A stretch of 64,000 nucleotides of DNA, from the IMG/VR virus record IMGVR_UViG_3300042517_000805, positions 43,145 through 107,144 of that record. The stretch is one strand, 5' to 3'. Under the pieces are notes generated by a model that did no database searches, had not been told where the DNA came from, and was given only the letters and a program-made list of their open reading frames with translations. Positions 4,701-39,043 of the stretch are shown piece after piece (position 1 is the first letter of the stretch; the number at the start of each line of letters is the position of its first letter). The stretch comes from a virus. The position numbers and the translations under genes are program-made.

Positions 4701-4776
4701 AGTTGGTTTACTATAAAAGACGAGTGGTTAATTAATTTATCAATATAGACTTATAGGATTAATAAAGGACATAGGA

Positions 4777-5957: not shown

Positions 5958-5967
5958 GATATAAAAT

Positions 5968-7265: not shown

Positions 7266-10200
7266 ATGGCTACAGCTTTTAATTTGACAGCACAACTTAA
7301 TTTACGCGGTCCAAATAATGTTAACAAGATTGTTGGAGACATTAAGAAACAACTATCTGGCATAACTGCTAATGTTAACTTGAAGTTGGACCCTAATGTT
7401 GCCAAGAACGTTAAGGCTCTTGATGCTTCGTTAAAATCGTTAAATTCTACATTATCTAGAACCTCTACGACAGCAACTTCTGCAGCATCTGCGATATCTT
7501 CTTTTGGTAGGGCTGTTAATTCTGTTAGCATAAAAAACATACCGTCACAAATTAATGCCACGGTATCTAGTATGAATAAGCTAAATAAATCTAGCGGAAC
7601 CATTGGACAGTCTTTGAATGAAGCAGCAACGGAGATGCAGGAGTTCGGTAAACAAGCAGGATTAGCAATTAGACGATTTGCTGCATTTACTGCTGTTACT
7701 GGAGTTATTTATAGTTTAACTAATAGTATTAATCAGGGTATTCAGGCTTTTATAGAATATGACAAAGAATTAGTTCGTTTACAACAAGTCACAGGTCAAA
7801 CTGCCGGAGGCTTAAAGCAACTACAAAATTCAATTTCTCAATTAGCAACTGGTTTGGGTGTTAGTTCAAAAGAATTAACAACAGTATCAGTTACACTAGC
7901 ACAAGCCGGTTTAAGTGCAAAAGATACCGAAAGAGCCTTAAGAGCATTAGCATTAAGTTCACTAGCCCCATCATTTGACGACATGAATGAAACGGTAGAA
8001 GGTTCTATTGCTTTGATGAGACAGTTCGGCATTAGTGCTGGACAATTAGAACAAGCCCTAGGTTCTGTCAACGCTGTTGCTGCTGCGTTCGCCGTAGAAG
8101 CCGATGACCTAATTACTGCTATTCAGCGTACCGGCGGTGTGTTTGCTACTGCTAGTAAAGGCGTTAGTGAAGGAACAGATGCTCTTAATGAATTTATCTC
8201 GGTGTTTACTAGCGTGAGAGCAACCACTCGTGAAAGTGCAGAAACTATTGCTACTGGTTTACGTACTATCTTTACACGTATTCAGAGAGGTAGCACAATT
8301 GATGCCCTTAAGGAGTTCGGTGTTACTCTAACAGACTCAGAGGGCAAATTCGTTGGAGCCTATAGAGCCGTACAATTACTAAGTGAAGGATTGTCTAAAC
8401 TAGATCCAAGAGATATTAAATTTTCTAGAATTGTAGAAGAGTTGGGCGGCTTTAGGCAGATTGGTAAAGTTATTCCTCTTATCCAACAGTTTTCTGTTGC
8501 TCAGAACGCTCTTAAGATAGCACAAACAGGACAATCTTCTTTAGCTAAAGATGCAGCAACAGCACAATTGTCATTAGCAAATCAAATTCAAAAAGTTCGT
8601 GAAGAATTCTTTGCGCTGTTTCGTGAAATTGGACAAAGCAAAGGCTTTCAATCCTTACTCACTGGAGTATTAACACTAACAAGAGGACTAATCAAGCTTG
8701 CTGATGTTTCAAAGAGTTTGCTACCTGCGTTGAGTGTCGTTTTAGCATTTAAGGGTGCTAGTGCTTTAACTCAATTTGCTAGCGGTTTCAGCAAGGGTTT
8801 CAGGCCGGGTGGTGGTAAACCAGAAAAAGAAAGACCACGATTCGCAGACGGCGGAAGGGTTAGAAGATTTGCTACTGGTGGTGTAGTGCCCGGTAGTGGT
8901 GACAGAGATACTGTTCCAGCTATGCTAACTCCTGGTGAGTTTGTGGTGAGAAAACAAGCAGTTAAAAGTATTGGAACAGCACATCTACATAGAATAAATA
9001 AGCGAGCTAAGGGTGGCCCAATTACAGTAGAAAAATTAAAAGATATTAATCCCAATGCTGTTCAGCCTGACTATAGAAATACAGAAGAAGCAAAAAATAA
9101 AGTAGGAGAAAAAGACCAAACTTGGAGCACATACAGAGATCAAGGCAGGAGAGGGAAGGTCAGGTCAACAGCTGTTAAATATATGCAGCCAAGAGACGAA
9201 GTATACGGAGATGTAGAATACGTACCTATTCCTGATCCTAATAGGTCAGAAGTTGAAAAATATTTTGGCAAGATAGTTCTTAAAAAAGGAATTAAGTCTA
9301 TCAATCCAAAAGATAAGAGAATAAGTACTGCTTATGAAAATTATGCTCAGGATAAAGTAAAAACAATAGGAGCTCGGTATAGTGGAGATTATGATCCTTT
9401 AGATTTTGAAACCGGAGATGTTAAATTCTATAGTTCTGAAGAAAATATTCAAAAATATGTTTCGATAAATAAAGTTCTTTCAAAAAGACTCAGACATCAA
9501 AATAAAGATAATAGAATTAAATGGCAACCAAACTCTCCAGAACAAAAAGAGTTAGAGCCAACAACAATATATCATCCAACAGACTTAACGGAAAATAATA
9601 ATTTAAAGAAAAGAATTTCAGACTGGATTTTATTATCACAAAATCAAAGAACAACTCAGGCGATTAGAGAGGGTGACTCTTTTAGTTTTGGTGGATTAGT
9701 TCAAAAATTTGCCGAAGGAGGAGAGGCTGCTAGGATTAGGAGAGTTGGAATTATAGATAGTGACGTATTGCGAGATAAGATTAACGCTGAAAAAGTTGCT
9801 CAAGGAATGGAGTCAATCGGATCAGATAGTATACAAGACTATACCATACAACTAGCCAAGCTAGGCGTACAAAAAAGAAAGTCTGGTGACCTCAAAAAGT
9901 TTAGAGTTATTGCTGGAGCTGCTGGTAGTGGAAAGAGCAGCTTAGCTACTGGAGTATCTGCTAATGATAACGCTACTTTGCGAAAAACTATTAGATCTCA
10001 TATTATAACTCCACAAGATCTGGATAGTGTAGATGAAATTTTAACTATCACAGCAAATGTTAGTGATGCAAAATTAGAGGGCTATCTTAGAGATGCAGAT
10101 AGAACATATACCGTCTCATCCTCTACTAAGGCCGAGCAAGATCTAATAAAAAGAAATAAAGAATCCAGAGACATCACTGGACAAGGACTTTACGGCAGAG

Positions 10201-13200
10201 AACCAGGGAAAACAAAGGGCGTTCCTGCAGATTTTGGAGTAGAAGAAGCAACACTAATCGATCAACTAGGATCAAAAAATGTTGTACTAGGAAGAAAAGA
10301 AGATGCTGAAGGTAATCTTACAAATAGATTTAGAAGAAAAAGAGAAGATGAATTACCAGAAATAGTACAAGCAGAAGGCTTCTATACTGGTGGTTTTGCT
10401 CCTCCAACAAGAGGTCACAGAGGCGCTTTTGATACATTGCTAGCAAATGTAATTGCCAAAAATCCAAAGGCAACACTAAAAGATATTTTGGTTTCAGTAG
10501 CTCCTAATGTTGCGATGGTCGAAGGAAAAGAAGGACTAGAGCACGCTGCTAGATATGGTATTTTTGATGCTGATTTTAGATCATTATTAGCAGATGTAAA
10601 CTTTAAAGGAGCTATGATCTCTCAGGATGCACAGTCTACTCCTGGAATACTTCCCAAGGTTATGGAAGTTCCTAGCGAAAACAATCGTAGAAAATTTGCT
10701 CGACTCAAAGGAGCGATGGCTATTACTTCCGGAAAAGAACAGGGAGTTTTAGGAAAATACGAGAGAGCAGGAATTGAGGTTACTGACATTCCAAGAATAG
10801 AGGATATTAGTGCTACTAAAGTAAGAGAATTATTATTTAGTCAAAATTATACTGAACTTGATAAAATAGTTAATCCTGAAGTTGGGGCAATACTTAAAGG
10901 TAATCAACCACAGCTTAAAAATAGATCAGTAATGGTTCCTGTTTTATTAGAAGAGCTTCATAAAGCAGCCGAAGCTAATACTGTTTTAGCTAACCAAAAA
11001 GCAGATGATATACTTGCTAATGCTCCTGGCGGTCCATATGCTAATGTTAGTAAAAAATTAAAAACAGAACACCCAGATATTGCAGCACAAGTTAAGTCTA
11101 TTAGAGAACAAAGAGATCAGTTTAAGAAGTCTATTTCTGGAGCTAAAGCCCATTCTATTATTAGTGAATTAGCAGCTGCCTATCCTGAAATTTATGGTAT
11201 TGATCCTTCTCGTAGAGCAGCAACAGCAGCCGCTAGCATATCAGCAGAAGACGCTAGGTCTCATCTAGGAGATAGAGTAAAATCGCTAGTGTCAGGAAGA
11301 GGCGCAGCAACTCCAGAACCTTCTCTGCTAGAGAGTATCAAGCAAAATGTTACCAAACAATTAGCAATTCCAAAGGGTTCAGGTACTTTACCCACAGACT
11401 CTAAGACAATTACTAGCGCCTTCTTAAATACCAAGATACCGTCTGATCCAACATTCGGTATGTTTTCAGGCAAGACTATAGATCCTGGTATAGTAAAGAA
11501 AGTTTGGAGACAAACATATCCAGGACTATCAGAAGATAAGACAGCAAGCTATATTGCTTTAAAAGAATGGCTAGAAGCACAATATAATACTCGTACCGGC
11601 GCCAAAACTGAAAAACTGTCTCAGGCCATTCAAGAATCTAAAATGGTTGGATTGGTTGGTATGCTACCAATCGGACACGAAAAACTATCTGGCCCATTTA
11701 CATGGATGCTGGGTAAAAATGCTGCTGGCGAGGATGTTTCCGTTACTGCTTCAATTATAGAAAGAGGATTGGGCAAACAATACGAGGAAGAGATTAAAAA
11801 AGCACAGAGTCACGCTGAACAAGGATCAGAACTTCTAGCTTCTGGACTAGCGTCTAAGATGAAAAAACGACCAGAGTCTTTAAGATCTCTTGATAAAGCT
11901 CAGCTTGAAACTTTAGGTCAGGGAAATATTGAAGGAGCATATGTTGAACAGGCATTAGCCAGACTATGGGCCAATTTAGACAATGTTAGTACCAGAACTC
12001 GACCAATAGACTACCCAGACGGTCTCGGAGAATCTGCTGAACTATTTCCTGGCATATCTCCAACTATGCCGACAGAAGTTAAGAGAACAATTAATAGTGA
12101 TAGTAGAAGTGATGCCATAGAAGAATTCCAAAGGTATTTCAGACTTATTCATGCAATACCAGAACCAAAAGCCAAGAAAGAAGCAGTTAAAGCATTAGCT
12201 TCAGGCGGAGAAGTACAAAGATTCATGGCTGGTGGAGTAGCAACCAAAACCAGAAAACCAAAAGAAGTTTTTGGAACTGGAGAAACAGCATTCCCATCAA
12301 GAATATCAAAAAAATATGCCGAAGAACAACATTCAGCTAGTGAAAGCTTAAGAGCTAAATTATCATGGGATAAGTATCCTAAAGATGAAAGAATAATGGT
12401 TAACGAAGATAAGGTACAAGAAGCCTATCAACAACCATTTGATAGAGATAGGTTTACCTCATCATTTAAAGAAAAAATTAGTCGTGACTCGCTCTTTGAG
12501 AGAATGTCAGATTTTGCTAAGTTTATAGGACTGCCACAAGAAGACTTATCTCTAGCACTACCATTACAATTGGATTTTGGAGCAAGCTCAAGAGGGGGTG
12601 GGTTGGGAATGTTCTCTGCTGCTGAATTCGGAAAAGGAGCATCTGGAATTAGGCCATATGAAGGCTATGATCTATCTAAATTTGGATATGGAGAAAAAGA
12701 AAAGCAAGAATCTTATGGATTAGAAAAACTTATAGCAGCAAAAGAAAAAGAAATAAAAAAGATTAGAAAAACTCCTACTGAAACTTTTGATGATGGTAGT
12801 TTCTCTTTTGACAGTGAGGCATTTCAGAAGACTTATATTGAGTTAGATAATCTTAAAAATAGATTTTTTAGATTAAAAGACCTAAAACGTGAAGCAGAAA
12901 AGGCGGCCCTTGCTGAACAAAATACCATTTCCTCAGCTACTGGTCGTGGAACCATCGGCTTTGCTCCTTCTATGGGATATGCTTCCACCACACAGAATCA
13001 CTCGCTATATCATGAAATGACACATCAGCTATTTGAAGGATTAAGAACAAGATCAGCAGAAAGCTTTACTAAATATAGAGATAGAGTATCGTCTTTATTC
13101 TCTGGAGATAATGACGATTTAGCAGATGCTTTTGACTCTTTAACGGCAGTAACAGCAGGCGGCGGATATACTAGTGCTGATGTTGTATATGGTAGAAGTT

Positions 13201-16200
13201 ATAAGTCAAATAACTTAAGTCAAATACTTTCAAGCTATTATCGTCAGAATCTTGATTCTTCTAGGGGCACTACTCCTATTCCTGAAGATATAACAAAAAA
13301 TCTTGCTAGTTTAAGTACTCAAAGTACAGCTGCTAAAAGAGCTAGAGAGTATAGGCCAATAAATCCTCAAGTTAACGAAGCTTTACTTCAAGGAGGTGCT
13401 AAGTTTGGAATGACTCAAGAGAAGATTAATAGAATGGAAGATAATGGTAAAGAAGAATTCTTAACAACTTTAATAGAAAAAGCTCCTCAGCTTGATCAAA
13501 ATTTACAAGGGATTTTAGATTCTACCTTAACAGAACTATTAAGTGGTGCTGGAATTCAAAGACAAAAATATGCTTCAGGAGGCAAAGCTTCAAGAAGAGT
13601 AGACTTTGAAGCCGGAGTAGGGCAGTCACCATTCGGAGGTTCGGTATCAAAAAGATTAAGTCAATCCATTTACAATCTGCAAAAGAACACCGGACTAAGT
13701 GATTCAGAATTCAATGAAATTAAAAAGACGGCAGATACATACGGATACAATGAAGAAGAATTTAAAGAATATTTAGCAAAAAGAATACAAGAGAAGAAGA
13801 ACAAAGAGGGGTTAAGAACTAATCCATCAGCACTAGCACAGCAGTTGATGCCACAAACAAGGGTGTCAACACCTAGACAGCTAGCATTAGCACAAGCATT
13901 AAAAGACACCTCTAATGATATCGGATATAGACCATCTACTTTAGAAACAATAGCTCAAGCAAGAACAGACGTTGGTAACGCTACTAGATATGCCGTCGGC
14001 GGTATTGCTAAAGTTGGCAAGAAGGAAGACAAACAGTACGGTCAAATTAGCATCACTGAAGACGCCGGAATGATTAATGTTGGATATCAAAAGGGTGATA
14101 ATAGACAAGGATATGCTACTGGTTACAAGATGAGGAATAATCTATATTATGTTGGATTGTCTAAAGCGACAAAAGGCTATGGACCAAGATTGTATGACGT
14201 ACTGATGGAAGCTGTAACAGAAAAGGGCGCCATGCTGACATCCGATAGGTCATCAGTCAGTGAGGATGCAAAACGAGTATGGGAATATTATTTTAAAAAT
14301 AGGGGTGATGTTAAGAAAACTCCACTTAAACCATCTGATTGGACTGTTAATTCGAATTTAATAGATCCAAAACTTTACGGCAAAAAAGAAACTTGGCCCC
14401 CAGCAACTGATCCAGCTTGGACATTACAGACAGGTTATAGTAAATCTCCTAAATTAATAACTAATACTAATGAGGTTATAAGAAAGAGATCAGGTGGTCG
14501 CCTTAGTTTTGAAACTGGTGGCACTGTTCCAGCTTTAGTTAGTAATGGAGAAGCTTATATTCCTCCTAAGATTGCTAAAAGAATTGGTTATAGTAATCTT
14601 AATCGTATGAATCAAGCTGACCGTAACGGAATGAGCAAGTTCTCTAGTGGTGGTATTAGTGTGTTTAAAGGCCCTGGTACCGGTACTAGCGATAGCATTC
14701 CTGCTAATTTGCCAGTTGGTAGTTTTATTCTTAGAGAGAAAGCTACTAAGGCTTTGGGTTTTAATAAAGGAGGTGCTGTACCAGCACAAAGATTTGCTAC
14801 TGGAGGTGGCGTAACAAGCATGATTATGGAATGGCTGTCATCAGACATGACTGCTAGAACCAAACCCAAAATGGCTCCAAGACCTGATGTTGTAAACAGG
14901 GCGAGTGTTGTTGCTTCTAATGATACCACCAAAGCTTTAGATATTCTTGTTAAATCTCTTAATCAATTAGGTTTAAGTGCTGCTAATTCTGCAGATATTT
15001 TAAATAAGGGTGGGCAAGTTAGTTATAAAACTATACAAAAGGCTTTAGCTGAAGATATTAAAAGATTAAAAATTTCAGGAGCAAGCATACAAAGCATAGT
15101 TGCAGCAGAAACTACACTTGCTAATATTCGTAAAAAGAGTAAAGAAGAAGTTACTAAACAAAAAAATATACAAGGATTAACCAGTGCTAGAGGCAACTCT
15201 TCTACTAAGATTGTTGGAGGTCAAACAATTGGGGACCTACAAGCTGGTTCTGGTGCTGGACAACAAGCAATAGAGACACAAGCCCAGATGCTTGCTGCAG
15301 CAAGAATCAGAAGAAGAGGAGGAAAGGTAACAGAAAAACAACGATCTGAAATAATGGAATCATCGTACATTGATTCTGCTTCTAGAATTACTGGAATTAA
15401 AAAGAAAGAATTTAAAGCTGCTGGAATTAGTGGTGGAGATATTCAAAAATATATAGCTGAATCCATGAAGGATCGCAAGAGCTTGGCGCAGATGGATAAG
15501 CAGCTAATAGCACTCAAAACTAATGAGTTGACGAATAGCGCTGCCTACATAGCCGCCTCTAACGCAGAACAAAAAAGAATGTTGACAGAAGTTCAACAAG
15601 CAACGAAAGAAGAAATATCAACTCGCAGAAAGATTATCAACGATCTAGCTGCTCAAAATGGAACTAAGGGAGTTGGTGCTGCTGGGTTGAGAGATACTAG
15701 AAATAGTCCCATACTTAATCAGATAAAAGGATTTATAAAATCTCCTGGTAAAGTGATGGGTGGAATATCTGCTGCTGCTGGACTAACTGCTGGTGCTTCT
15801 GATATGATTGCGAAAAATATTTATAATATGAGCACAACAGAAGGCCAAGGTAAAGCAGCAAAAACATCAGCAGCTATTCAATCTTCTGGTACAATTCTTA
15901 GCACCGGAATGGCAGCAGCATCACAGATGGCAGCTATACCAGTTATTGGTCCCTATGTTGCTGCTCTTACTGCTGTTGGAACAGCTGCTGCGGCTGCTGC
16001 TGATTATTTTTATGATTTTACCGGTGCTCAAAAGGCTGCCACAGTAGAATTTGAAAGATCAGTAAGAGCTAAAGAAATTGGAATTGCTATGGATGGTTTG
16101 GATAGAGCATTCCAAAATTTTGAAAAAGATATGGGTAATATAACCTTACAAAAGGCTCTAGAACAAGCTATTGGTAATACTTCTTCTTTACAAATTAAAG

Positions 16201-19200: not shown

Positions 19201-22200
19201 GATTAGACCTCAATGAAGACGGTATTTTGGACAGAAAAGAAGGATATCCATACCAAGACTTAGATAAAGATAAAGATGGAAATATAACACAAGAGGAATG
19301 GAAAAATAATGTATTAGCACGAGCAAAGGTTCGTAAGCTAGAAAATACCATAAAAATAATTGAAAAAGAAATAGCTGAAGGAAAACCTGTTCCTGTAAAC
19401 TTTGAAGCAATGAAAAGAACACTAGGTTTCGCCAAAATAGATGCAGGTATGGCCGCTGCTCCTGGTGACAATAAGGCTTTTATCGCTAGACAAAAACGTA
19501 TTGATGATAATATGAATAAAAGATTATTGGGGGGTGGTTCTATTAATAATCCTGATGGTTCTTATGTTTTTAATAGAGAACTTAATAAGATTTATGATCG
19601 TAGATCAGCTTTTGAAGAAGAAAGAAGAGCACAGAGAGCTAAGGACGAAAACGCAACGGACGAAGAAATATTTGATCGCACAGTAGAGGCCTATGGGGCT
19701 GGAGACTCTAACTATTGGCGCAACAGTATGGGAGTCACCGAACTGCCAAATGTTTATGATAATTCTAGAACTTTAGACGTTATTCGCAATGAGAGTGATC
19801 TCTCCAGTAAGGGAGATCCTAATGGAGAAAAAACTAGAGCATATATAGACGGATATATACAATCACAAGGAGCAAGACAACAAGCGGACAGAGTGGCTCG
19901 TGGTATTGGGGCAGAGATTGATTCTCCAGATATTGCCGTAACAGGAACTCAGGGACCAGTAGATAATCTTAACTATTTAATAGACCAAAAAGAAAAGGGC
20001 AGAGTAGCAGAAAAAGCAGCAAGAGACGAAAACTTTAAACAAGAGAATAAAAATAGAGAAGGCGCTGATGCAAGACAGGCAAAATTGGATCAAAGAGATA
20101 AAGAACTAGGTATAGATACTAGCGGCATTAATCGAGATATATATGAGAGTGGTGGAGGTTTTTCAAATCAGCCAGGAAGTGGCAGAAAAGTTACGATAGA
20201 AGAACAAAAACAAAGAAAAAGAGAAAAGGCTATAGCTGCTAGGTTTTCATTTACAGATAAAACAGGTAAATACTCCACTACTGGAACTATTGACAAAGTG
20301 GATTTTGAAAAAGGTACTGTTAGAATAGCTAAAATTGATCCAAAAACTGGTGAGCCTATTACTAGAACCGTTCCGGTTTTTGCCGATGGCCAAACAGAAG
20401 AAGAGATTAAAGCTTCTGGTAGAGATCCCGAAAGATTTAAGGTTGGAGAGAAAGAAGAACAAGTATACACTACTGTACCCCTAGACAAACTTAGTGACCA
20501 GTCCAGAGACAAGGCCAGATCCCATGGTTTGGAAAAAGAAGCAGACAAAGCCAAGGCTGGTGAAAACTTCTCAATAGGGGAGGCTACTGGCAAAAAGCGT
20601 ACAATATCTGGTAAAATATTCAGAGTAGACGAAAAGGCCGGAACAGCTGTCGTACAAAGAGATAGTGGTAAGCTGGTCACTATACCATTAGAGAAACTTG
20701 CTCCAGAGTCTAGAAATATAGCACTAGATCAAGCCAAGACAGCTACTACTGTTACTGATTTAACGCAGAAACAAATGGATGCTGATGTTGGTAATATTGA
20801 TGTTACTTCATCATTACCAGAACCACCAATTCCATTAGCTGAAGACTTTACTGATAGAGCAAATGAAGTTCGTCAAGAGACGATGAATAATGCTGCTTTA
20901 GAACAGACAAAGATGGATCAGTTGCCGATGATGTCTGAGCCGGTACCAACTTCGGGCACTATTGATCCTATTACTGGCAAGGTTGTTGGAAATAATGTTT
21001 CTATGGACTTGAATCCAGATGGAACTCGTACACCAGAACAATTAAACATATTAAGTCAGCAAGCTACCAGAGATGCCGATAGGCGTAATTCTAACGCAAG
21101 ATATGAGGAGCTTAGAGGTCGATCAAAAGCAGAGGATGCATACGACAGATCATGGCTTGGAGAAAACTGGCCCAAAGAATGGGGAGGAGTACAAAAACCA
21201 AAACGAAGATTAACTACAAAAGAACTAGAAGAACTTGGAGCGATGGAAAGCGAGAGAGGTGTTCCTGCATTATCAAGATTAGGAGCTAATACACGAGCAG
21301 AACAAACAAGAAGATCAGCAGGATTAGACGAAGCACAAATTGAAAGTTTGAGTCAACAAAAAACAGAACAGTTTAAAGCTGAACTTGAGAAAAAAAATGA
21401 CGCAGAAGGTGGGGTGGCTGTTGGACTAGCTGCTCAAAGAGCAGTAGTTCCATTATTGGCTGGTGCTACAGCTATTGCCGCCGCTCCTGCTTTAGTTCCA
21501 GCAGGAATAATTGGGGCTGGACTTACTATTGCTGGGGGTGTTACTGCTAGTTTGGGCGCTAATAAATTACAAGATATGGCATTAGAAGGTACGGATTTTG
21601 ATAAGAGACAAAGAGAATTGGCAGAAAAAAGGCCAGGAGCAACTGCTGTTGGTTCTTTATTGCCAGGATTACTAACGGGCAATCCACTGACTGGTGCAAC
21701 CACTATGGGTCGAGCACTAGCAACAAGAGCTGCTAGCGGAGCTACTGAAGCAGCATTAGGGGCCGGTATCAGAGGAGCAACTAGTGGTGGGGATTTTGGT
21801 ACTTATGAAGATTTCCGGAATGACTTTCTTTCTGGAGTTATTCTTCCAACGTCTAATTTTGGAAGTAAGGGATCCAGAAATTATAGTCGTCCAGAAGGTC
21901 CAGCAAAACCTACGTCTTTAAAGGATGTTGCAGCAACAGTTAGAGATGAACAACTAGCAATCAGAGAAGAAAACGTTCTTGCTGGTAATGAGAGAATAGC
22001 AACTAAACGAAAACAAGACGAAGTTAGAAAAGCGGCACAAGCAGAACAAAGAATCAAAGATGAAGTAGAAGCAGTGAAAGAATCAGGAAGAGAAAAGGCT
22101 GTTTTTGATTTTATGAAGCCACTCATTACTCGTCCAGATAAGAGTAATAGCCCTATAGTAAAGGGCGTAGCAGACATGGTACTTAATCATCATAGAGATT

Positions 22201-25200
22201 TGATGGCTAGAGTAAAATCTAAGGATATATTAGAAAAAGGTCGTGGTCTGAATGATGAGCAGATTACAACACAGCTTACAGATGCTGGAATAGATCCTGA
22301 ACGAGCAGCAGCTATAGTTAGAAAAAGAACAGAAGCCAATAATAAAGCACAATCTGATCTTGCTTTGGAAAGAGGAACAAGAAGAGCGGAAGCTAAAGAG
22401 AGACTAGATGCTGAATATAGAAAAGAAGTTGAAGGAGTTACAGATCCTAAAGAAACAGCAAAAATAAAGGCTAGATTCCAAGAACAATTAAATAAAGAAG
22501 CTTCTTTGATTGATGTCGATATTAACGACAAGACGTCAGCAAATAAAGCCGGTATAACAGTTCAAGAGCTGAAACAACAAAGAGCAGCAGAAGCTCAAGC
22601 CAAAGATAAAGCAGAGTCTGATAAACTAATACAAGAGTTTGATTCTACTCTAGGATCAAGTAAGCCAACAACTATTGATAATCTTCCTATGGGAGAACCT
22701 CTTGATTTAGGTGTGGACCCGCTTGCGCCAATAACATCTGCCAAAGATAATGCTGCTACTACGGCAGCTAGTACAAAACCAGTCGATGCTGCAACAGTAG
22801 CAGCAAAAAACCAGACAGTAGTCAAGGCAGCAGAACAAGAAAATACATCTTCGCTACAAACATCAGCGATACCGCAGCCCAAACCCTATAATCCTACAGA
22901 TTATCCTATTATGGATAGTATTATGAGAGGAGGAAAGAACGGCCATTATGGTCCGATGGGTACTACTAATATAACAGGTAAACAAAATATTCATGGAATA
23001 AGCGGATGGAAAACTAGACTCATACCAAAAGACGACGCGTCTGCAGCAAAAATTAAAGAATTTTTAGATACTCATCCAGATATAGGGGAATATAAGTTAG
23101 CATTAAATGAGGGACCAGTACCAGTATTTAGTGTCTATTTCAAAAAGGGCACCAAAGATGAAGCACTATCTTTTGCACAAGCTAGTGAAAAAGGACTAAA
23201 AGATAGTTTAGATCCTCGTTTATATCAGGGTGCTGATACTCTGCTAGAAGGGACAAATATTTCCGCAAGATTTGATGCTAGAGATCTAAAGTATGAATCA
23301 GCATCATCAATTATAGATAGACAACTAGAGAATTCTCCTTTTAGTAGAGGATTTTTAAAAGCTGAAGAACTGAATCTACAAATACCTGCATCAAATACGG
23401 CAGCTGGGTCAACGGCTAGCAGAGCAATGCCAAGCATTACTGCTGGCACCAGAGGAGTACCAGATACTGGGTATGTTGATTGGTTAAAAACAAAAAAGTT
23501 TTTGGCGAAAGATCCTAAAAAGATAGCTAGTCTAGATGCAGAGATACAAAGAGCTACTAACGTAGCAGATGATTGGCTAAAAGAAAATATGTCAGACCTC
23601 TACAGCTCATCTGCTGAACGAACAACTAGAGAATCAACTACTCAAACCGGTGGGGTAAAACCACAACAACAAGCAGTAGTTGAAACAGCAATCAGAGATG
23701 CCACAAGCACACCAACCAAATCCGGTTTTGTTCGAGACAAATCGTTATCGACAGACAAAGTAGATGATCTAGCTTCTGCCGGATTTGGAGTTATAAGTCC
23801 AGACCAAGAAGTAGAAAGTGTTATAAGAGGAGCAAGAGAAAATTCTCTTGGCGTTTTAACTAAACCAGCAGCGTTATTACAGCCAGAAACATACCAAAAA
23901 TATGCAGACCAACTATTAGAACTAGAAAAATCAGGAAAAATAAAAATAACCAAAGGCGCTTCATTTGGTACTAGTGGCCAACCAAGTATATTTGTAGGAA
24001 AACCAGAAAATGTAGATACTCTTGCAAAAGCTTTTGAATCTGAAACAGCAAGAACACGAGAAATGGGGGTTCCAGCATCAGATGAATTTCACGAAACGGT
24101 AGGAAAGGCACTAGGATATAGTAAAGATAGTAGAGAACTATTTAGATTAAGAAAAGATTGGGATAAAGCAGGATTAGATATAGATACTATTCAAGATAGA
24201 TTACAAACTAGCCGTGGTGCTGCTGCTAGATATATGGTATCAGAAATTAATAAGGCCAAAGAACAAGCATCAGTCGAGCAAGGAGTAAAAGAATCAACAA
24301 ACCCGCCCATCAAACCTCCTATTGATGGAGATGAATTTGAATTAGGAAACTTGGGAGATGAAACCCCAGAAGAAAAGGCTCGACTAGACGCACTATATCC
24401 TCCGGGTTCTGAGGGATTTTTGGGCCCAATAAAGCCAGATAATGTATTACCTGAAGCAAGAGCAGAATCACAAGCTCGCACAGTCGAAACCAAACCATCC
24501 TCTTTTGAACAAAATCCAGAAGACTTTACAAAGCTTATTGATGAAACTCTTTCTCCATTCCCAGAAGACTTTTTCCCAGATGGTTCTTCAAAACCAAATG
24601 CTAGAGTAGAAGCAGAAATTGATAGTAATACAGTAAACGCTTCTTCTCCAGAAGCTTTAAAAGCCTCTGCAGAAGCTCAACAAAAACTAGCAGCACAAAA
24701 ATTAGCAGCAAAATCTCCAGAACAAATATCTGTAGAAAAAACATATGGTCCTTTATATAGAGAAGCTAAAAAAGCCAACGATACAGCAGAGATGGCCAGA
24801 ATACGATCAGAAGCTAATGCAGAATTTAAGAAACGCTCTCAAGAAGCTTCAACCAGAGCTGAAGATAAAAAGAATAGTTTCCTTCCTGTTATGGGTAAGG
24901 TCTTAAAGATAGCTGCCCCCATTGGAACTGCTATAGGTTATGGATTAGGATCATTATTAACCAGGGATAAGAGAAAAGAAGAACCTCAAGATCCAGCCTC
25001 TAAACTAAAAAATGCCTCTAGTTTACAGGAAGTCTACGATTTAATAAGCGCAAACGATAGGGGAACAAAAGGCTTTAGCGCAGTAGAAATTGCCATGAAG
25101 CTTAGAGAAATAGACCCTAAAGCATATGACAAGAGCGGTGATGAGTATGTTAATCTAGGAGAATTGGCAGGAATGCCAGATAGTGCATATGATGCATACT

Positions 25201-26630
25201 TAGACAGATTGAAAGACAGGGCAGCAACAGCAAAACCCGTCAACTATCCAGATGTTCCATCTTTAGACAAAGATAAAAATATTAAACCATCTTTTGGCGC
25301 ATATATACCATCTCTAGAGAGTACAATGGCTCCTCAACAGTATGGGGCCGGAGTTTATCAGGGTCCGTCATCCATGCCCACATTTGATTTAACAAAAACT
25401 AAGACCGATGCTGCAGCAATGCCAGAAGTTAATGTCAAAGATAATAATGCTGCTCCGATGCCAGGAACTAAGAAACCAGTAAAGAAAGCTCTCGGGGGTT
25501 TAATCTATGCTTCTGAAGGAATGAAGATTCCTAGACCTAATACAATACTATCTAGTTCACAATCTAATAGTGGACTATATGATAGATATGCCTCTTCAGT
25601 ATCACAACCAATAGATATTGGCAAGTCTTCAGAAAATTCTTTTTCAAGATATATAAAATCTGGTGGTAGAAGAATGTCTGACAACGTCGAGGTTAGACCC
25701 AAATTAACAACAGATGAAGTACTACAGTATTTTGAAAACAAAGAAGCAAAAGAACGTCGTGAAGGTGCTCCTCCTGCTGGCGGTAGGGTTCAATATGCAA
25801 CTGGTGGAATAGTATACGCAAATAATGGAGCACTAATAAATGCCCAACCAATGGGAACTGACACTGTTCCAGCAATGTTAACTCCTGGCGAGTTTGTTGT
25901 CAAAAAAGAACAAGCTCAAAAACACGCTCCAATACTACATGCTATAAATAGTGGAGCATATAGTAGGGGTGGTATTGTTAATTATTTGGCTAATGGTGGT
26001 GTTGTTAATCCAAACTATTTATCGTATGGCGGTTATCCCGACATGGGAGATTTACAAAATCGTCGCAATCCTTTAAAGGAGATGAGTCAGAGAGTAGCCG
26101 AATATAATGCTTCTATGGCTCCTCAACCAGTACCAATGCCCGCTCCAGCACCGGTTCAAGCACCCTCTCCAGCACCAGCGGGTGGTGTATCTAGTAATGT
26201 TGGTATAGATGTAGCTAATTTACAGTCCATAGTAACTAATTTGCAGAAAACGGTCAATGACTTTGGAGCATCGATACCTTCACTTTCACAAGTGGCAGAA
26301 AGTATGAATACTGGTTTTAGTTCTTTCGTAACAGGAGGATCCCAAATAGGACAAATGTTAAATAGCGCTACAGCGGGTCTACAACAAGTTAATCTTCCTG
26401 ATAGGATTAGACTAGAAGGTTCAGTAAGCAATAACGTAAATATTAACGGTGCTGAAGCAGCCGCTAGAGTTATGGATACTATGGGTGGGGCTATTCAACA
26501 GGGAGCAAATGAACAAATAGGCAGATTCGCAGGAGCTATTAATCGAGGTATTGGTAATTTGGGTGAAGGAGCATTAGGTCCAGATACTGGTCAAATTATG
26601 GGTCAAATAGGTGGTTCAAATTATGTTTAA
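7266..26630 (+). CDS. Giant tail tape-measure protein (6454 aa) with multiple enzyme-like inserts
   Basis: Sets tail length, lies in the tube lumen and is expelled at infection. Residues 130-470 match the TP901-type tape-measure core (EYDKELVRLQQVTGQ, the GGFRQIGKVIP region). A TPGEFVV motif recurs near residues 553, 3756 and 6200, with a degenerate copy near 2420-2500, each beside Gly-rich linkers. Between them lie a P-loop (GAAGSGKSS, 884), a nucleotidyltransferase-like domain (PTRGH 1047-1051, ISATKVRE 1181), HEMTH (1916), an acetyltransferase-like segment (about 2255-2370), EF-hand pairs (3812 and 3976), and two SHD1-like modules (4325 and 4432). Hydrophobic stretches lie at about 2825-2920, 4718-4769 and 5870-5900. 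No clear Shine-Dalgarno precedes the ATG. The domain mix resembles phage 'polyvalent proteins'. Confidence 0.9.
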   Translation: MATAFNLTAQLNLRGPNNVNKIVGDIKKQLSGITANVNLKLDPNVAKNVKALDASLKSLNSTLSRTSTTATSAASAISSFGRAVNSVSIKNIPSQINATVSSMNKLNKSSGTIGQSLNEAATEMQEFGKQAGLAIRRFAAFTAVTGVIYSLTNSINQGIQAFIEYDKELVRLQQVTGQTAGGLKQLQNSISQLATGLGVSSKELTTVSVTLAQAGLSAKDTERALRALALSSLAPSFDDMNETVEGSIALMRQFGISAGQLEQALGSVNAVAAAFAVEADDLITAIQRTGGVFATASKGVSEGTDALNEFISVFTSVRATTRESAETIATGLRTIFTRIQRGSTIDALKEFGVTLTDSEGKFVGAYRAVQLLSEGLSKLDPRDIKFSRIVEELGGFRQIGKVIPLIQQFSVAQNALKIAQTGQSSLAKDAATAQLSLANQIQKVREEFFALFREIGQSKGFQSLLTGVLTLTRGLIKLADVSKSLLPALSVVLAFKGASALTQFASGFSKGFRPGGGKPEKERPRFADGGRVRRFATGGVVPGSGDRDTVPAMLTPGEFVVRKQAVKSIGTAHLHRINKRAKGGPITVEKLKDINPNAVQPDYRNTEEAKNKVGEKDQTWSTYRDQGRRGKVRSTAVKYMQPRDEVYGDVEYVPIPDPNRSEVEKYFGKIVLKKGIKSINPKDKRISTAYENYAQDKVKTIGARYSGDYDPLDFETGDVKFYSSEENIQKYVSINKVLSKRLRHQNKDNRIKWQPNSPEQKELEPTTIYHPTDLTENNNLKKRISDWILLSQNQRTTQAIREGDSFSFGGLVQKFAEGGEAARIRRVGIIDSDVLRDKINAEKVAQGMESIGSDSIQDYTIQLAKLGVQKRKSGDLKKFRVIAGAAGSGKSSLATGVSANDNATLRKTIRSHIITPQDLDSVDEILTITANVSDAKLEGYLRDADRTYTVSSSTKAEQDLIKRNKESRDITGQGLYGREPGKTKGVPADFGVEEATLIDQLGSKNVVLGRKEDAEGNLTNRFRRKREDELPEIVQAEGFYTGGFAPPTRGHRGAFDTLLANVIAKNPKATLKDILVSVAPNVAMVEGKEGLEHAARYGIFDADFRSLLADVNFKGAMISQDAQSTPGILPKVMEVPSENNRRKFARLKGAMAITSGKEQGVLGKYERAGIEVTDIPRIEDISATKVRELLFSQNYTELDKIVNPEVGAILKGNQPQLKNRSVMVPVLLEELHKAAEANTVLANQKADDILANAPGGPYANVSKKLKTEHPDIAAQVKSIREQRDQFKKSISGAKAHSIISELAAAYPEIYGIDPSRRAATAAASISAEDARSHLGDRVKSLVSGRGAATPEPSLLESIKQNVTKQLAIPKGSGTLPTDSKTITSAFLNTKIPSDPTFGMFSGKTIDPGIVKKVWRQTYPGLSEDKTASYIALKEWLEAQYNTRTGAKTEKLSQAIQESKMVGLVGMLPIGHEKLSGPFTWMLGKNAAGEDVSVTASIIERGLGKQYEEEIKKAQSHAEQGSELLASGLASKMKKRPESLRSLDKAQLETLGQGNIEGAYVEQALARLWANLDNVSTRTRPIDYPDGLGESAELFPGISPTMPTEVKRTINSDSRSDAIEEFQRYFRLIHAIPEPKAKKEAVKALASGGEVQRFMAGGVATKTRKPKEVFGTGETAFPSRISKKYAEEQHSASESLRAKLSWDKYPKDERIMVNEDKVQEAYQQPFDRDRFTSSFKEKISRDSLFERMSDFAKFIGLPQEDLSLALPLQLDFGASSRGGGLGMFSAAEFGKGASGIRPYEGYDLSKFGYGEKEKQESYGLEKLIAAKEKEIKKIRKTPTETFDDGSFSFDSEAFQKTYIELDNLKNRFFRLKDLKREAEKAALAEQNTISSATGRGTIGFAPSMGYASTTQNHSLYHEMTHQLFEGLRTRSAESFTKYRDRVSSLFSGDNDDLADAFDSLTAVTAGGGYTSADVVYGRSYKSNNLSQILSSYYRQNLDSSRGTTPIPEDITKNLASLSTQSTAAKRAREYRPINPQVNEALLQGGAKFGMTQEKINRMEDNGKEEFLTTLIEKAPQLDQNLQGILDSTLTELLSGAGIQRQKYASGGKASRRVDFEAGVGQSPFGGSVSKRLSQSIYNLQKNTGLSDSEFNEIKKTADTYGYNEEEFKEYLAKRIQEKKNKEGLRTNPSALAQQLMPQTRVSTPRQLALAQALKDTSNDIGYRPSTLETIAQARTDVGNATRYAVGGIAKVGKKEDKQYGQISITEDAGMINVGYQKGDNRQGYATGYKMRNNLYYVGLSKATKGYGPRLYDVLMEAVTEKGAMLTSDRSSVSEDAKRVWEYYFKNRGDVKKTPLKPSDWTVNSNLIDPKLYGKKETWPPATDPAWTLQTGYSKSPKLITNTNEVIRKRSGGRLSFETGGTVPALVSNGEAYIPPKIAKRIGYSNLNRMNQADRNGMSKFSSGGISVFKGPGTGTSDSIPANLPVGSFILREKATKALGFNKGGAVPAQRFATGGGVTSMIMEWLSSDMTARTKPKMAPRPDVVNRASVVASNDTTKALDILVKSLNQLGLSAANSADILNKGGQVSYKTIQKALAEDIKRLKISGASIQSIVAAETTLANIRKKSKEEVTKQKNIQGLTSARGNSSTKIVGGQTIGDLQAGSGAGQQAIETQAQMLAAARIRRRGGKVTEKQRSEIMESSYIDSASRITGIKKKEFKAAGISGGDIQKYIAESMKDRKSLAQMDKQLIALKTNELTNSAAYIAASNAEQKRMLTEVQQATKEEISTRRKIINDLAAQNGTKGVGAAGLRDTRNSPILNQIKGFIKSPGKVMGGISAAAGLTAGASDMIAKNIYNMSTTEGQGKAAKTSAAIQSSGTILSTGMAAASQMAAIPVIGPYVAALTAVGTAAAAAADYFYDFTGAQKAATVEFERSVRAKEIGIAMDGLDRAFQNFEKDMGNITLQKALEQAIGNTSSLQIKDNMAERDNAKAEFSLKNRSWSDIFSGNFKGSAQMDALEQGAMDSEMSQKLSPISDKAMALYDKQISSGKSIEDIVNNVRTGNKDAVNAGAAVAFNANPKLWSELEQKVKASGDASEANVLKIKRGIVARELLTNAELQAAVKRSKLERDMEASNRAGRRLAETFDHISETIDQSIQRMQRESEIRQAQANDRVEARRGNAGFDERAVNNRNVGVLTNPKAYQNDPRRIEEAIRAGSSGMSPELAQKMAGGARLEATLPNVMRNAISTELKSNASLGLDEAADAARRKGTEAIRNSGLSEADQKVAIDKLNARIEDEKKKVQDNEKGTPAEQVDSFTDSISDLGPEIANIFGNAGKKLDDIIQARQGIYDTFAKNLQAASEAAKKAREFFSKARDIRYDAGMDLREAQTGVGESFSEAKAKSDSSIARLTGGVTDPQAIGRNIDALMARRDQQMKDRDAALSNPNLTQDQQKDAATKFAKDIQATNNALNDNREALDKLANSAEVAQKALDEVKNIRGLQQDRENFVNQLLTNTPEEADKLNQTFIRLQRNLSGGLNNASNQRDARNAFNDTLRRTGNLREATRAGNTVLADQRKQTLQLMQDPGFRGMMTLNMKNQGMNDQQIDKRFRDQEGMLMQQMAIESGLINNPMVRQALAAKQDPNADPAMKRAADQFLQATGLQAKASEEQGRLELANVQNLLVTATDELRMSIDTLTTTINGSLGKDGERVPGVAGPVVPVPAGARGVARPPRPMATGGKVKTQYASTGQLIDFSPKGTDTVPAMLTPGEFVVNARSTAKHLPLLKAINSGAGVDATSNMSKGGVVYLDNGGLIDEFRKIDANKSNFLEVGEIDLKMIQLLDRDKDNKVSFGEYSSRVKSDGSSGSSRSGSGSSVKSGFKAQDMSFEQYYNNRAQKYAKRYQGTGDEVPRDTDKFANGGMVTPYYLAEGTNRPLSRPVMVALPPKKDPIETARAARKQGVPTKRRPSLVPGDPRAKDAEPSFFRLDLNEDGILDRKEGYPYQDLDKDKDGNITQEEWKNNVLARAKVRKLENTIKIIEKEIAEGKPVPVNFEAMKRTLGFAKIDAGMAAAPGDNKAFIARQKRIDDNMNKRLLGGGSINNPDGSYVFNRELNKIYDRRSAFEEERRAQRAKDENATDEEIFDRTVEAYGAGDSNYWRNSMGVTELPNVYDNSRTLDVIRNESDLSSKGDPNGEKTRAYIDGYIQSQGARQQADRVARGIGAEIDSPDIAVTGTQGPVDNLNYLIDQKEKGRVAEKAARDENFKQENKNREGADARQAKLDQRDKELGIDTSGINRDIYESGGGFSNQPGSGRKVTIEEQKQRKREKAIAARFSFTDKTGKYSTTGTIDKVDFEKGTVRIAKIDPKTGEPITRTVPVFADGQTEEEIKASGRDPERFKVGEKEEQVYTTVPLDKLSDQSRDKARSHGLEKEADKAKAGENFSIGEATGKKRTISGKIFRVDEKAGTAVVQRDSGKLVTIPLEKLAPESRNIALDQAKTATTVTDLTQKQMDADVGNIDVTSSLPEPPIPLAEDFTDRANEVRQETMNNAALEQTKMDQLPMMSEPVPTSGTIDPITGKVVGNNVSMDLNPDGTRTPEQLNILSQQATRDADRRNSNARYEELRGRSKAEDAYDRSWLGENWPKEWGGVQKPKRRLTTKELEELGAMESERGVPALSRLGANTRAEQTRRSAGLDEAQIESLSQQKTEQFKAELEKKNDAEGGVAVGLAAQRAVVPLLAGATAIAAAPALVPAGIIGAGLTIAGGVTASLGANKLQDMALEGTDFDKRQRELAEKRPGATAVGSLLPGLLTGNPLTGATTMGRALATRAASGATEAALGAGIRGATSGGDFGTYEDFRNDFLSGVILPTSNFGSKGSRNYSRPEGPAKPTSLKDVAATVRDEQLAIREENVLAGNERIATKRKQDEVRKAAQAEQRIKDEVEAVKESGREKAVFDFMKPLITRPDKSNSPIVKGVADMVLNHHRDLMARVKSKDILEKGRGLNDEQITTQLTDAGIDPERAAAIVRKRTEANNKAQSDLALERGTRRAEAKERLDAEYRKEVEGVTDPKETAKIKARFQEQLNKEASLIDVDINDKTSANKAGITVQELKQQRAAEAQAKDKAESDKLIQEFDSTLGSSKPTTIDNLPMGEPLDLGVDPLAPITSAKDNAATTAASTKPVDAATVAAKNQTVVKAAEQENTSSLQTSAIPQPKPYNPTDYPIMDSIMRGGKNGHYGPMGTTNITGKQNIHGISGWKTRLIPKDDASAAKIKEFLDTHPDIGEYKLALNEGPVPVFSVYFKKGTKDEALSFAQASEKGLKDSLDPRLYQGADTLLEGTNISARFDARDLKYESASSIIDRQLENSPFSRGFLKAEELNLQIPASNTAAGSTASRAMPSITAGTRGVPDTGYVDWLKTKKFLAKDPKKIASLDAEIQRATNVADDWLKENMSDLYSSSAERTTRESTTQTGGVKPQQQAVVETAIRDATSTPTKSGFVRDKSLSTDKVDDLASAGFGVISPDQEVESVIRGARENSLGVLTKPAALLQPETYQKYADQLLELEKSGKIKITKGASFGTSGQPSIFVGKPENVDTLAKAFESETARTREMGVPASDEFHETVGKALGYSKDSRELFRLRKDWDKAGLDIDTIQDRLQTSRGAAARYMVSEINKAKEQASVEQGVKESTNPPIKPPIDGDEFELGNLGDETPEEKARLDALYPPGSEGFLGPIKPDNVLPEARAESQARTVETKPSSFEQNPEDFTKLIDETLSPFPEDFFPDGSSKPNARVEAEIDSNTVNASSPEALKASAEAQQKLAAQKLAAKSPEQISVEKTYGPLYREAKKANDTAEMARIRSEANAEFKKRSQEASTRAEDKKNSFLPVMGKVLKIAAPIGTAIGYGLGSLLTRDKRKEEPQDPASKLKNASSLQEVYDLISANDRGTKGFSAVEIAMKLREIDPKAYDKSGDEYVNLGELAGMPDSAYDAYLDRLKDRAATAKPVNYPDVPSLDKDKNIKPSFGAYIPSLESTMAPQQYGAGVYQGPSSMPTFDLTKTKTDAAAMPEVNVKDNNAAPMPGTKKPVKKALGGLIYASEGMKIPRPNTILSSSQSNSGLYDRYASSVSQPIDIGKSSENSFSRYIKSGGRRMSDNVEVRPKLTTDEVLQYFENKEAKERREGAPPAGGRVQYATGGIVYANNGALINAQPMGTDTVPAMLTPGEFVVKKEQAQKHAPILHAINSGAYSRGGIVNYLANGGVVNPNYLSYGGYPDMGDLQNRRNPLKEMSQRVAEYNASMAPQPVPMPAPAPVQAPSPAPAGGVSSNVGIDVANLQSIVTNLQKTVNDFGASIPSLSQVAESMNTGFSSFVTGGSQIGQMLNSATAGLQQVNLPDRIRLEGSVSNNVNINGAEAAARVMDTMGGAIQQGANEQIGRFAGAINRGIGNLGEGALGPDTGQIMGQIGGSNYV
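7653..8675 (+). other. TP901-type tape-measure core domain (residues ~130-470)
   Basis: The helical, Gln/Ala/Ser-rich segment contains the family-typical order: membrane-like AAFTAVTGVIYSL, then EYDKELVRLQQVTGQ, GLGVSSKELTTVSVTLAQAG, then the RTIFTRIQRGS and GGFRQIGKVIP segments. This is the part of the protein that identifies it as a tape measure. Confidence 0.85.
9723..10370 (+). other. P-loop kinase-like region inside the tape measure (residues ~820-1035)
   Basis: A strand, FRVIAGAAG, leads into a Walker A motif GAAGSGKSS at residues 884-892. A polar helical region with DAKLEGYLRDADRTY follows. Zeta-toxin-like or other small-molecule kinases have this N-terminal arrangement. A Walker B motif was not assigned with confidence. 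It directly precedes the nucleotidyltransferase-like domain. Confidence 0.55.
10371..10910 (+). other. Cytidylyltransferase-superfamily-like domain in the tape measure (residues ~1036-1215)
   Basis: The opening GFYTGGFAPPTRGHRGAFD has the layout of the (H/T)xGH signature of adenylyl/cytidylyltransferases. About 130 residues later comes ISATKVRELL, the family's second signature (ISSTxxR), correctly placed before a C-terminal helix and a VNPEVGAIL segment. Both substrate-contact motifs are intact, so activity is possible. The substrate cannot be read from the sequence. Confidence 0.65.
12483..13545 (+). other. Zinc metallopeptidase-like domain in the tape measure (residues ~1740-2090)
   Basis: SLYHEMTHQLFEG places an HExxH motif at residues 1916-1920, preceded by a Gly-rich region (PLQLDFGASSRGGG) and a strand before the helix, as in the metallopeptidase domains of polyvalent phage proteins. 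The third metal ligand was not identified with certainty. This could be an active protease or a structural remnant. Confidence 0.55.
14022..14375 (+). other. GNAT-acetyltransferase-like segment in the tape measure (residues ~2253-2370)
   Basis: Beta strands (SITEDAGMINVGYQ, NNLYYVGLSKA) lead to KGYGPRLYDVLMEAV, which has the position of the acetyl-CoA pyrophosphate loop plus helix, then AKRVWEYYFKNRG near the end. This order is that of short phage-type acetyltransferases. The loop deviates from the canonical Q/R-x-x-G-x-G/A. Confidence 0.4.
18699..18824 (+). other. EF-hand pair 1 in the tape measure (residues ~3812-3853)
   Basis: Two calcium-loop candidates, DANKSNFLEVGE and DRDKDNKVSFGE, are each 12 residues with acidic residues at positions 1 and 12 and a hydrophobic residue at position 8. 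They are separated by a short helix. The second loop is near-canonical. Confidence 0.65.
19191..19325 (+). other. EF-hand pair 2 in the tape measure (residues ~3976-4020)
   Basis: The loops DLNEDGILDRKE and DKDKDGNITQEE both have Asp at 1, Asp/Asn at 3 and 5, Gly at 6 and Glu at 12. They are flanked by aromatic helix residues (FFRL, EEW). This is a near-canonical calcium-binding pair. Confidence 0.75.
20238..20738 (+). other. Tandem SHD1-like beta modules in the tape measure (residues ~4325-4491)
   Basis: Two related units share an opening strand (FTDKTGKYSTTGTIDKVD; GKKRTISGKIFRVDEKAG), a central strand, and a closing (V/I)PL-(D/E)-KL block (TVPLDKLSDQSRD; TIPLEKLAPESRN). The layout matches SLA1-homology-domain-1 (SHD1) modules, which are frequent in Planctomycetes proteins. 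Confidence 0.5.
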
Positions 26631-39016: not shown

Positions 39017-39043
39017 TTATATAGACACAAGAGGATTTTGATA

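What the first reader, a model, noticed from the sequence alone, without database searches (positions are those of the whole stretch)
7266..26630. Tape-measure protein that is also a multi-enzyme 'polyvalent' carrier
One reading frame joins a TP901-type tape-measure core to a P-loop region, a nucleotidyltransferase-like domain, an HExxH metallopeptidase-like domain, an acetyltransferase-like segment, EF-hands and SHD1-like modules. Polyvalent proteins (large phage proteins bundling such domains, thought to be delivered with the DNA) are described, but fusion of this set into a tape measure would make the tail lumen a delivery vehicle for effectors. This is the best candidate here for an undescribed system.
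Basis: partly seen in the sequence, partly recalled or inferred. Interest (0 to 1): 0.9.

Follow-up and report, generated by a model that had tools for sequence, protein, structure and literature searches.

The report
Phage tail ruler carrying swappable enzymes
In a family of very large uncultured phages, the giant protein that sets tail length and is expected to be pushed into the bacterium first also carries a stretch into which different enzymes are swapped like cassettes, which suggests that the tail itself delivers the phage's first-strike tools.

Summary
The 6454-aa frame (7266-26630) is real and intact, and recurs in other records. Its N-terminus is a TP901-type tape measure. EF-hands are borderline; SHD1 was not found.

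Sixty-three related tape measures from viral contigs show the slot is general: 139-2229 aa in 56 closed slots, 26 module orders plus five slots without a recognised module. Modules (of 64): PD-(D/E)XK-like 56, HAD 26, kinase+nucleotidyltransferase 19, zincin 12, ADP-ribosyltransferase 11 (my profile; Pfam finds 8 of 60 slots), GNAT 7. A linker, GGx[VI]QKFxxGG, often precedes modules. The window's P-loop-to-zincin block was exchanged recently with a relative whose tape core is only 66% identical; cores at least 95% identical carry different cargo. In six 223-244 kb records, matches to the window's modules lie only in the tape-measure frame.

Best explanation: the tape measure is an effector carrier, ejected ahead of the DNA. 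Delivery and activity are inferred. It is a new variant of polyvalent proteins; my searches found no isolate with this cargo and no report of it.

The parts
7266..26630 (+). tape measure/cargo carrier frame, 6454 aa
   Evidence: identical in G001, 6560-aa homologue in two more records
7710..8717 (+). TP901-type tape-measure core (aa 149-484)
   Evidence: TIGR01760 4e-26; PF10145 3.5e-21; PHROG tape measures
8865..9014 (+). first TPGEFV motif unit (aa 534-583), left border of the cargo slot
   Evidence: matches short stretches in phage records; repeated in relatives
9690..9722 (+). linker GGLVQKFAEGG (aa 809-819)
   Evidence: linker pattern 82 times in slots, shuffled mean 0.01; identity to the homologue rises from here over aa 810-860
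9738..10292 (+). P-loop kinase-like domain (aa 825-1009)
   Evidence: Walker A kept in 17 of 19
10377..10961 (+). nucleotidyltransferase/adenylyltransferase-fold domain (aa 1038-1232)
   Evidence: VIA Z 13.6, all 50 rows adenylyltransferases; T/HxGH in 16 of 19, [IF]S[AG]TxxR in 19 of 19
11007..11822 (+). helical segment that follows the kinase+nucleotidyltransferase module in some relatives (aa 1248-1519)
   Evidence: 13 of 64, partial in several; helical model
11919..12140 (+). PD-(D/E)XK-like motif domain (aa 1552-1625)
   Evidence: 56 of 64; E 54/60, D 60/60, D/E 59/60, K 46/60
12204..12236 (+). linker GGEVQRFMAGG (aa 1647-1657)
12195..13583 (+). zincin-like metallopeptidase module (aa 1644-2106), HEMTH at 13011-13025
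   Evidence: 12 of 64; HExTH and GK[EQ]EFLTT in 12 of 12
13983..14498 (+). GNAT-like acetyltransferase domain (aa 2240-2411)
   Evidence: 7 of 64
14502..14672 (+). second TPGE-like motif unit (aa 2413-2469), right border of the slot
14583..18545 (+). conserved rod region used as anchor (aa 2440-3760)
18756..18818 (+). EF-hand-like motif (aa 3831-3851)
   Evidence: EF-hand_1 28.2 bits, 21.3; cut-off 25.4
19257..19307 (+). EF-hand-like motif (aa 3998-4014)
   Evidence: EF-hand_5 25.2 bits and 24.2, below the cut-off of 25.9
18546..25748 (+). second variable stretch (aa 3761-6161), mostly unassigned
   Evidence: 15-52% identity to the homologue in 100-aa bins from 3701 to 6101; no enzyme family in Pfam

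Best explanation
The protein is the tail tape measure of a jumbo-size phage. Between its core and its rod it carries a slot for enzyme cassettes. In this copy the slot holds a kinase-like and nucleotidyltransferase pair, a PD-(D/E)XK-like domain, a zincin-like protease and a GNAT-like domain. Shown by sequence and models: one intact frame, enzyme folds or motifs, purifying selection, cassette exchange, and many alternative cargo sets in relatives. Inferred: the cargo rides in the tail tube (perhaps loosely folded), is ejected with the tape measure ahead of the DNA, refolds in the cell and acts as first-minutes effectors (macromolecule modification, NAD/nucleotide chemistry, nucleic-acid processing). 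The zincin or another protease may cut the modules apart.
For: Tape core over curated cut-offs. Adenylyltransferase fold with Z 13.6 and all 50 listed rows of that kind; acyltransferase top rows; zeta-toxin kinases among Foldseek's first four. Pfam's cytidyltransferase-related HIGH_NTase1_ass in 7 of 31 slots of relatives, best E 0.00035. Slot of 139-2229 aa in 56 closed slots at the same place, 26 module orders plus five empty. ADP-ribosyltransferase family in 8 of 60 slots, best E 3e-15. HAD motifs in 26 of 26 (DFDxTL by eye). aa 830-2110 is 84-89% identical to the homologue, with fourfold-site differences of 0.29-0.34 against 0.45-0.65 in the nine other stretches, dN/dS 0.12-0.17. Right edge of the block at a YASGG motif near aa 2105; left edge rises over aa 810-860, starting at a linker. 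Window and L023: core 90.6%, kinase module 39.0%; window and L050: core 65.7%, kinase module 87.0%. Matches to the window's modules lie only in the tape frame in six large records, five of which have any; the same for the ADP-ribosyltransferase family, 3 of 7 records. Tape measures are described as cargo ejected from the tube lumen (PMC13277306, passages).
Against: No virion or activity data. Globular domains would have to fit a narrow tube or be unfolded. Pfam finds nothing at E 0.01 in the window's own slot. The PD-(D/E)XK-like and zincin-like assignments rest on motifs. Foldseek gives no match at E 0.001 or better for either model, and the GNAT Z is below 8, with unrelated helical chains at Z 6.8 on another part of the model. 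Five closed slots carry no module recognised here, so cargo is not essential. The K of the PD-(D/E)XK-like motif is T in 14 of 60, two kinase modules lack Walker A and three lack T/HxGH, so some cassettes may be inactive. Two of the 11 ADP-ribosyltransferases counted by my profile (L036, L094) had no Pfam match at E 0.01.
Confidence: 0.72

Rival explanations
1. Polyprotein: the frame is cut in the producing cell (perhaps by its own zincin), so that the enzymes act there or are packed in the head, and the tail holds only the tape part.
For: Zincin-like domain in the window; linkers between modules; zincin processing is a theme of polyvalent proteins (PMC5512222, abstract passage).
Against: Zincin found in 12 of 64 while some recognised module occurs in 57 of 64; the rod lies C-terminal of the slot, so cutting out the slot would split the ruler.
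Confidence: 0.14
2. Structural padding: the modules are degenerate enzyme folds kept as spacers that tune tail length.
For: Slot length varies widely; some motifs are lost.
Against: Catalytic motifs kept in most copies; dN/dS 0.12-0.17 in the exchanged block; relatives with cores at least 95% identical have different domain types.
Confidence: 0.08
3. Selfish cassettes: the PD-(D/E)XK-like nuclease drives its own spread into tape-measure genes, as homing nucleases do.
For: The nuclease-like domain is the commonest module (56 of 64) and the blocks recombine.
Against: The domain is part of the coding frame; it sits beside many enzymes unrelated to mobility; K is lost in 14 of 60. Inteins and introns were not searched for.
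Confidence: 0.06

Closest known systems
Polyvalent proteins of phages and conjugative elements (Iyer et al. 2017, PMC5512222; passages seen, abstract in part)
   Same: Large proteins bundling many enzyme domains (ART, zincins, kinase-like) encoded beside virion genes and thought to be delivered with DNA.
   Different: Here the carrier is a TP901 tape measure. The word 'tape' does not occur in the main text of that paper. Cargo sits in a defined slot, often between short linkers.
Tape-measure-related effectors of contractile injection systems, Sle1 and Tme (PMC13277306; outline, abstract and passages seen)
   Same: Tape-measure-like protein with a variable functional domain loaded in a tube.
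   Different: Those serve bacterial nanomachines and Sle1 has one C-terminal functional domain. Here it is a phage genome-delivery tail with up to five recognised modules behind the core.
Virion-packaged ARTs and MuF-fused effectors (PMC9503650; passages seen, abstract in part)
   Same: ADP-ribosyltransferases packaged and deployed on entry.
   Different: Those are described as head-packaged or MuF-fused; 'tape' does not occur in the main text. Here ART modules lie in the tape measure of relatives, not of the window itself.
Tape measures with peptidoglycan hydrolase motifs (TM4; recalled, and cited in PMC12619734, passage)
   Same: Enzyme motif in a tape measure.
   Different: Those act on the cell wall during entry; here the enzymes look like cytoplasmic kinds and are interchangeable.

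Membership tests
TP901-type tail tape measure protein | profile match over curated cut-off | tested here: met
   TIGR01760 91.9 against 28.8 bits; PF10145 76.4 against 33.2
TP901-type tail tape measure protein | sets tail length, lies in the tail tube | not testable with these tools
   no virion available
Polyvalent protein | several unrelated enzyme domains in one large protein | tested here: met
   with the caveats given for each domain
Polyvalent protein | encoded beside virion genes | tested here: met
   the frame is itself a tape measure; downstream ORF 30180-32672 matches minor tail proteins, 5.2e-9
Polyvalent protein | delivered with the DNA | not testable with these tools
   needs virions and infection assays
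Nucleotidyltransferase (PPAT/NMNAT) superfamily | T/HxGH and ISxTxxR motifs on the Rossmann-like fold | tested here: met
   (Z 13.6, rmsd 2.6, 141 aligned); the motif definitions are recalled
Nucleotidyltransferase (PPAT/NMNAT) superfamily | substrate (NMN, phosphopantetheine or other) | not testable with these tools
   PPAT and NMNAT rows are tied within 1 Z
Zeta-toxin-like kinase | P-loop kinase fold of that family | tested here: inconclusive
   Foldseek prob 0.92 and 0.80, E 0.011 and 0.031; no Pfam match over a cut-off
Zincin metallopeptidase | HExxH and a third ligand | tested here: inconclusive
   HExTH and GK[EQ]EFLTT in 12 of 12; that the conserved E is the third ligand is inferred
Zincin metallopeptidase | zincin fold | tested here: inconclusive
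   no zincin among the listed fold matches
GNAT acetyltransferase | GNAT fold | tested here: met
   top rows Z 7.5 (105 aligned, rmsd 3.1) and 7.3; 19 of 50 rows lie on this part, nearly all acyl- or acetyltransferases. Z is below 8; Foldseek's own acetyltransferase matches have E 0.47 or worse
PD-(D/E)XK nuclease superfamily | E, D and (D/E)xK motif | tested here: met
   60 copies; K absent in 14; the motif definition is recalled
PD-(D/E)XK nuclease superfamily | core fold | tested here: inconclusive
   the region is modelled with low confidence
SHD1 domain | Pfam match | tested here: not met
   none at E 10 on aa 4301-4600
CIS effector of the Sle1/Tme kind | association with a DUF4157 core domain or a CIS gene cluster | not tested
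   the frame lies in a virus record

The most novel reading that the evidence does not exclude
A lineage of jumbo-size phages has turned its tail ruler into a re-armable injector. GGx[VI]QKFxxGG linkers serve both as recombination joints and as cut sites, so that enzyme cassettes are swapped between phages in nature and released one by one in the host after ejection. That would make the tail lumen, not the head, the delivery route for an anti-defence and takeover arsenal.
Probability: 0.33. Interest if true: 0.93.

Novelty: new variant of a known kind. Interest (0 to 1): 0.83.

Why it matters
Tape measures are treated as rulers and membrane channels. If they also carry interchangeable enzymes, many uncultured large phages bring effectors into the cell before any gene is read, and the slot becomes a place to look for counter-defence enzymes. 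It would link phage tails to contractile injection systems, whose tape-measure-like effectors may then have direct phage counterparts. It also asks a testable question: does the slot count towards tail length?

Tried and rejected
Assembly artefact: rejected, since the same frame occurs in other records. Isolate relatives: tblastn of aa 1-3000 found 21 phage records matching only the tape core or the TPGEFV unit; aa 601-2400, and two pieces of relatives' slots, found none in 50,697 records. Bacterial contigs: 40 stretches matched a pattern and none encoded a relative of the core, so no host could be named. Early searches of viral contigs with slot pieces found 3, 3, 1 and 6 loci. Sheath families PF04984 and PF17482 gave no match in 7 records, so the tail may be non-contractile, or the sheath divergent. 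Reverse transcriptase for a diversity-generating element beside the FGE-sulfatase ORFs: none in 3 records. C-terminal variable stretch: no enzyme family in the window or in three relatives. Sequence search of solved structures gave weak hits: NMN/NaMN adenylyltransferases E 0.044 and 0.064, NadR 0.3, UPF0348 0.00097 over 39 profile positions, UvrA 0.0032 over 22; designed armadillo proteins, from 7.5e-5, I took as helical chance matches. The second alignment gave one weak unrelated hit. Pfam on single window modules gave only matches below cut-off: SMC_N 0.003 for the P-loop, Acetyltransf_16 0.24 for the GNAT part, none sensible for the zincin part. The moraphage paper (PMC12619734, passages) was checked because its authors found no tape measure; no link was tested.

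Choices: one search kept the best 80 of 131 relatives; 81 sequences with the window were reduced to 64 by dropping 17 whose first 1000 aa were identical to, or contained in, another. The 64 are not evenly sampled: they were chosen by core similarity. Pfam was run on 60 of the 64 slots (L059, L061, L065 and L087 left out). Five short ADP-ribosyltransferase profile matches (under 150 aa, several of them linker) were dropped before counting 11 of 64; the profile was seeded with flanks that include linkers. GNAT-profile matches under 120 aa (TPGE motif only) were dropped before counting 7. That all 26 HAD modules have DFDxTL is by eye, whose first regular expression missed five; the other two HAD patterns were loose. 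The linker count uses slots widened by 80 aa before and 30 after. An alignment sets some left-flank residues of the window against the relative's ADP-ribosyltransferase cassette; those rows are not real homology. Architecture counts give 27 classes of which one is 'none'.

Full report
The observation. The frame from 7266 to 26630 is a single open frame of 6454 aa. The same protein is found letter for letter in a 243.8-kb record, which may be the same virus population, and a 6560-aa homologue lies unbroken in two more records. Its first 500 residues match tape measures: TIGR01760 91.9 bits, PF10145 76.4 bits, both well over their cut-offs, and several PHROG tape-measure families. The window is part of a 107-kb virus record.

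The cargo. Two AlphaFold models were made from alignments of locus proteins. For aa 822-1640 (mean pLDDT 74.8), model residues 213-397 have the adenylyltransferase fold: all 50 rows listed by VIA-align are PPAT, NMNAT, NadM or NadD, best Z 13.6 with 141 residues aligned at 2.6 A. Foldseek lists NadM first (prob 1.00, E 0.0039) and zeta-toxin kinases at prob 0.92 and 0.80. I take the latter for the P-loop half, though the aligned range was not shown. For aa 1644-2425 (mean pLDDT 71.7), the last part matches acyl-CoA N-acyltransferases (Z 7.5 and 7.3). Nineteen of the 50 rows lie there, nearly all acyl- or acetyltransferases; the Z is below the tool's caution line of 8. The zincin-like part gave no zincin match, but HExTH and a downstream GK[EQ]EFLTT are kept in 12 of 12 copies. 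Between them lies a short domain, aa 1552-1625. In 60 copies from 56 tape measures it keeps E (54), D (60), D/E (59) and K (46) in the spacing that I recall for PD-(D/E)XK nucleases. EF-hand-like motifs further on are borderline. SHD1 was not found. Pfam itself names no family at E 0.01 in the window's slot, so these calls rest on folds, motifs and relatives.

The slot. A search with the tape core found 131 related loci in viral contigs, of which 80 were kept; 64 non-identical proteins, the window included, were compared. Between a first and a second TPGE-like motif unit (or the start of the rod) each has an insert. In the 56 closed cases it is 139 to 2229 aa long, median 770. Profiles built from the window and from L023 found: PD-(D/E)XK-like domain 56 of 64, HAD 26, kinase+nucleotidyltransferase 19, zincin 12, kinase-fold-like module 2 (that last label is from motifs seen by eye), GNAT 7, ADP-ribosyltransferase 11. 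Collapsed to 56 groups at 95% core identity the counts are 48, 24, 16, 10, 2, 7 and 11. Pfam independently names ADP-ribosyltransferase exoenzyme domains in 8 of 60 slots (best E 3e-15). It gives no such match in two slots that my profile counts, L036 and L094. It also names a cytidyltransferase-related family in 7 of 31 and a staphylococcal-nuclease domain in one; ART-PolyVal is hit in one below its cut-off. There are 26 module orders and five empty slots among the 56 closed ones, with the zincin before or after the kinase module. Seven of 64 have no recognised module; two of these seven have slots cut off by the contig end.

Exchange. Compared with the 6560-aa homologue, aa 830-2110 is 84-89% identical with 0.29-0.34 of fourfold sites changed, while the nine other stretches have 0.45-0.65 changed, so this block has a younger common ancestor than the rest of the gene. 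Its dN/dS is 0.12 to 0.17. The block ends at the motif YASGG near aa 2105 on the right; on the left, identity rises over aa 810-860, starting at the linker at 809-819. The window and L023 share 90.6% of the tape core but 39.0% of the kinase module; the window and L050 share 65.7% and 87.0%. Proteins of one 95% core group carry different cargo: HAD plus PD-(D/E)XK-like in L077 and L079 against kinase module plus PD-(D/E)XK-like in L083; ART (my profile) at the end in L042 against zincin at the start in L048; GNAT present in L049 and absent in L051. The homologue L010 carries an ADP-ribosyltransferase between two linkers at 841 and 1019, where the window has one linker.

Linkers. Position four, left free in the pattern, is V or I in 79 of 82. 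Twelve of 19 kinase modules start within 10 aa of a linker (random mean 0.3, maximum 3 in 2000 draws).

Specificity. In six records of 223-244 kb the profiles of both halves of the window's cargo match only inside frames of 5079 to 7737 aa that hold the tape measures: 6 places for the first half in 5 of 6 records and 3 places for the second half in 3 of 6. The same holds for PF03496: 3 places in 3 of 7 records. G004 gave no match in any of these. The HAD module was not tested in this way.

Mechanism. Shown: one frame, enzyme folds or motifs, purifying selection, exchange. From the literature: tape measures are ejected from the tail lumen, and a tape-measure-like effector is thought to adapt to the lumen and refold afterwards (PMC13277306, passages). 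Large virion proteins with ART, GNAT and zincin domains are thought to be injected (PMC5512222 and PMC7824862, passages). Inferred: the slot modules travel the same way and act at once in the cell. Because the kinase and nucleotidyltransferase stand together as they do, in the other order, in NadR (recalled), NAD or nucleotide repair against NAD-depleting defence is a natural first test. Phage NAD-restoring pathways are known (PMC12774641, abstract start in the search listing).

Novelty. Neither the polyvalent-protein paper nor the NAD-ADPr survey contains the word 'tape' in its main text. The jumbo-phage survey uses 'tape measure' once, for the conduit. Library searches with tape measure and polyvalent protein, ADP-ribosyltransferase, enzymatic domain, effector domain, multidomain or cargo, toxin domain, modular or variable region, and lumen showed no title or abstract start that reports enzyme cassettes in phage tape measures; the lists were capped, between 5 and 20 papers each. 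Most subscription papers are not held and supplements were not read. I file it as a new variant of a known kind.

Noticed in passing
window 26651-30160, 39038-42790, 43238-44788: Three ORFs behind the tape measure carry FGE-sulfatase (formylglycine-generating-enzyme-like) domains, E 9e-13 to 9e-15; one also has DUF285 repeats (1.9e-66). They may be receptor-binding or display proteins; no reverse transcriptase was found.
   Followed up: partly
window 46847-53260 and 53264-61246: Two very long adjacent ORFs of 2137 and 2660 aa without any Pfam match at E 0.01.
   Followed up: no
L105 (G006), L107 (G005): Tape-measure frames of relatives reach 7737 and 5392 aa; the C-terminal parts scanned show no Pfam family at E 0.01.
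   Followed up: partly
L034 aa 3255-3386: A second, partial copy of the P-loop module lies behind the rod, in the second variable stretch, hinting at a second cargo slot.
   Followed up: no
window 8865-9014 and relatives: A TPGEFV motif unit of about 50 aa recurs several times per tape measure and also matches short stretches in phage records of Gordonia, Synechococcus and marine origin; its function is unknown to me.
   Followed up: partly
L023 aa 827-1052, L085 aa 982-1213: A module with motifs like a protein-kinase or aminoglycoside-kinase fold (by eye) in two slots only.
   Followed up: no
window 21333-21578: aa 4690-4771 weakly match a holin family (E 0.0011, below cut-off), possibly a membrane-spanning stretch of the tape measure.
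   Followed up: no
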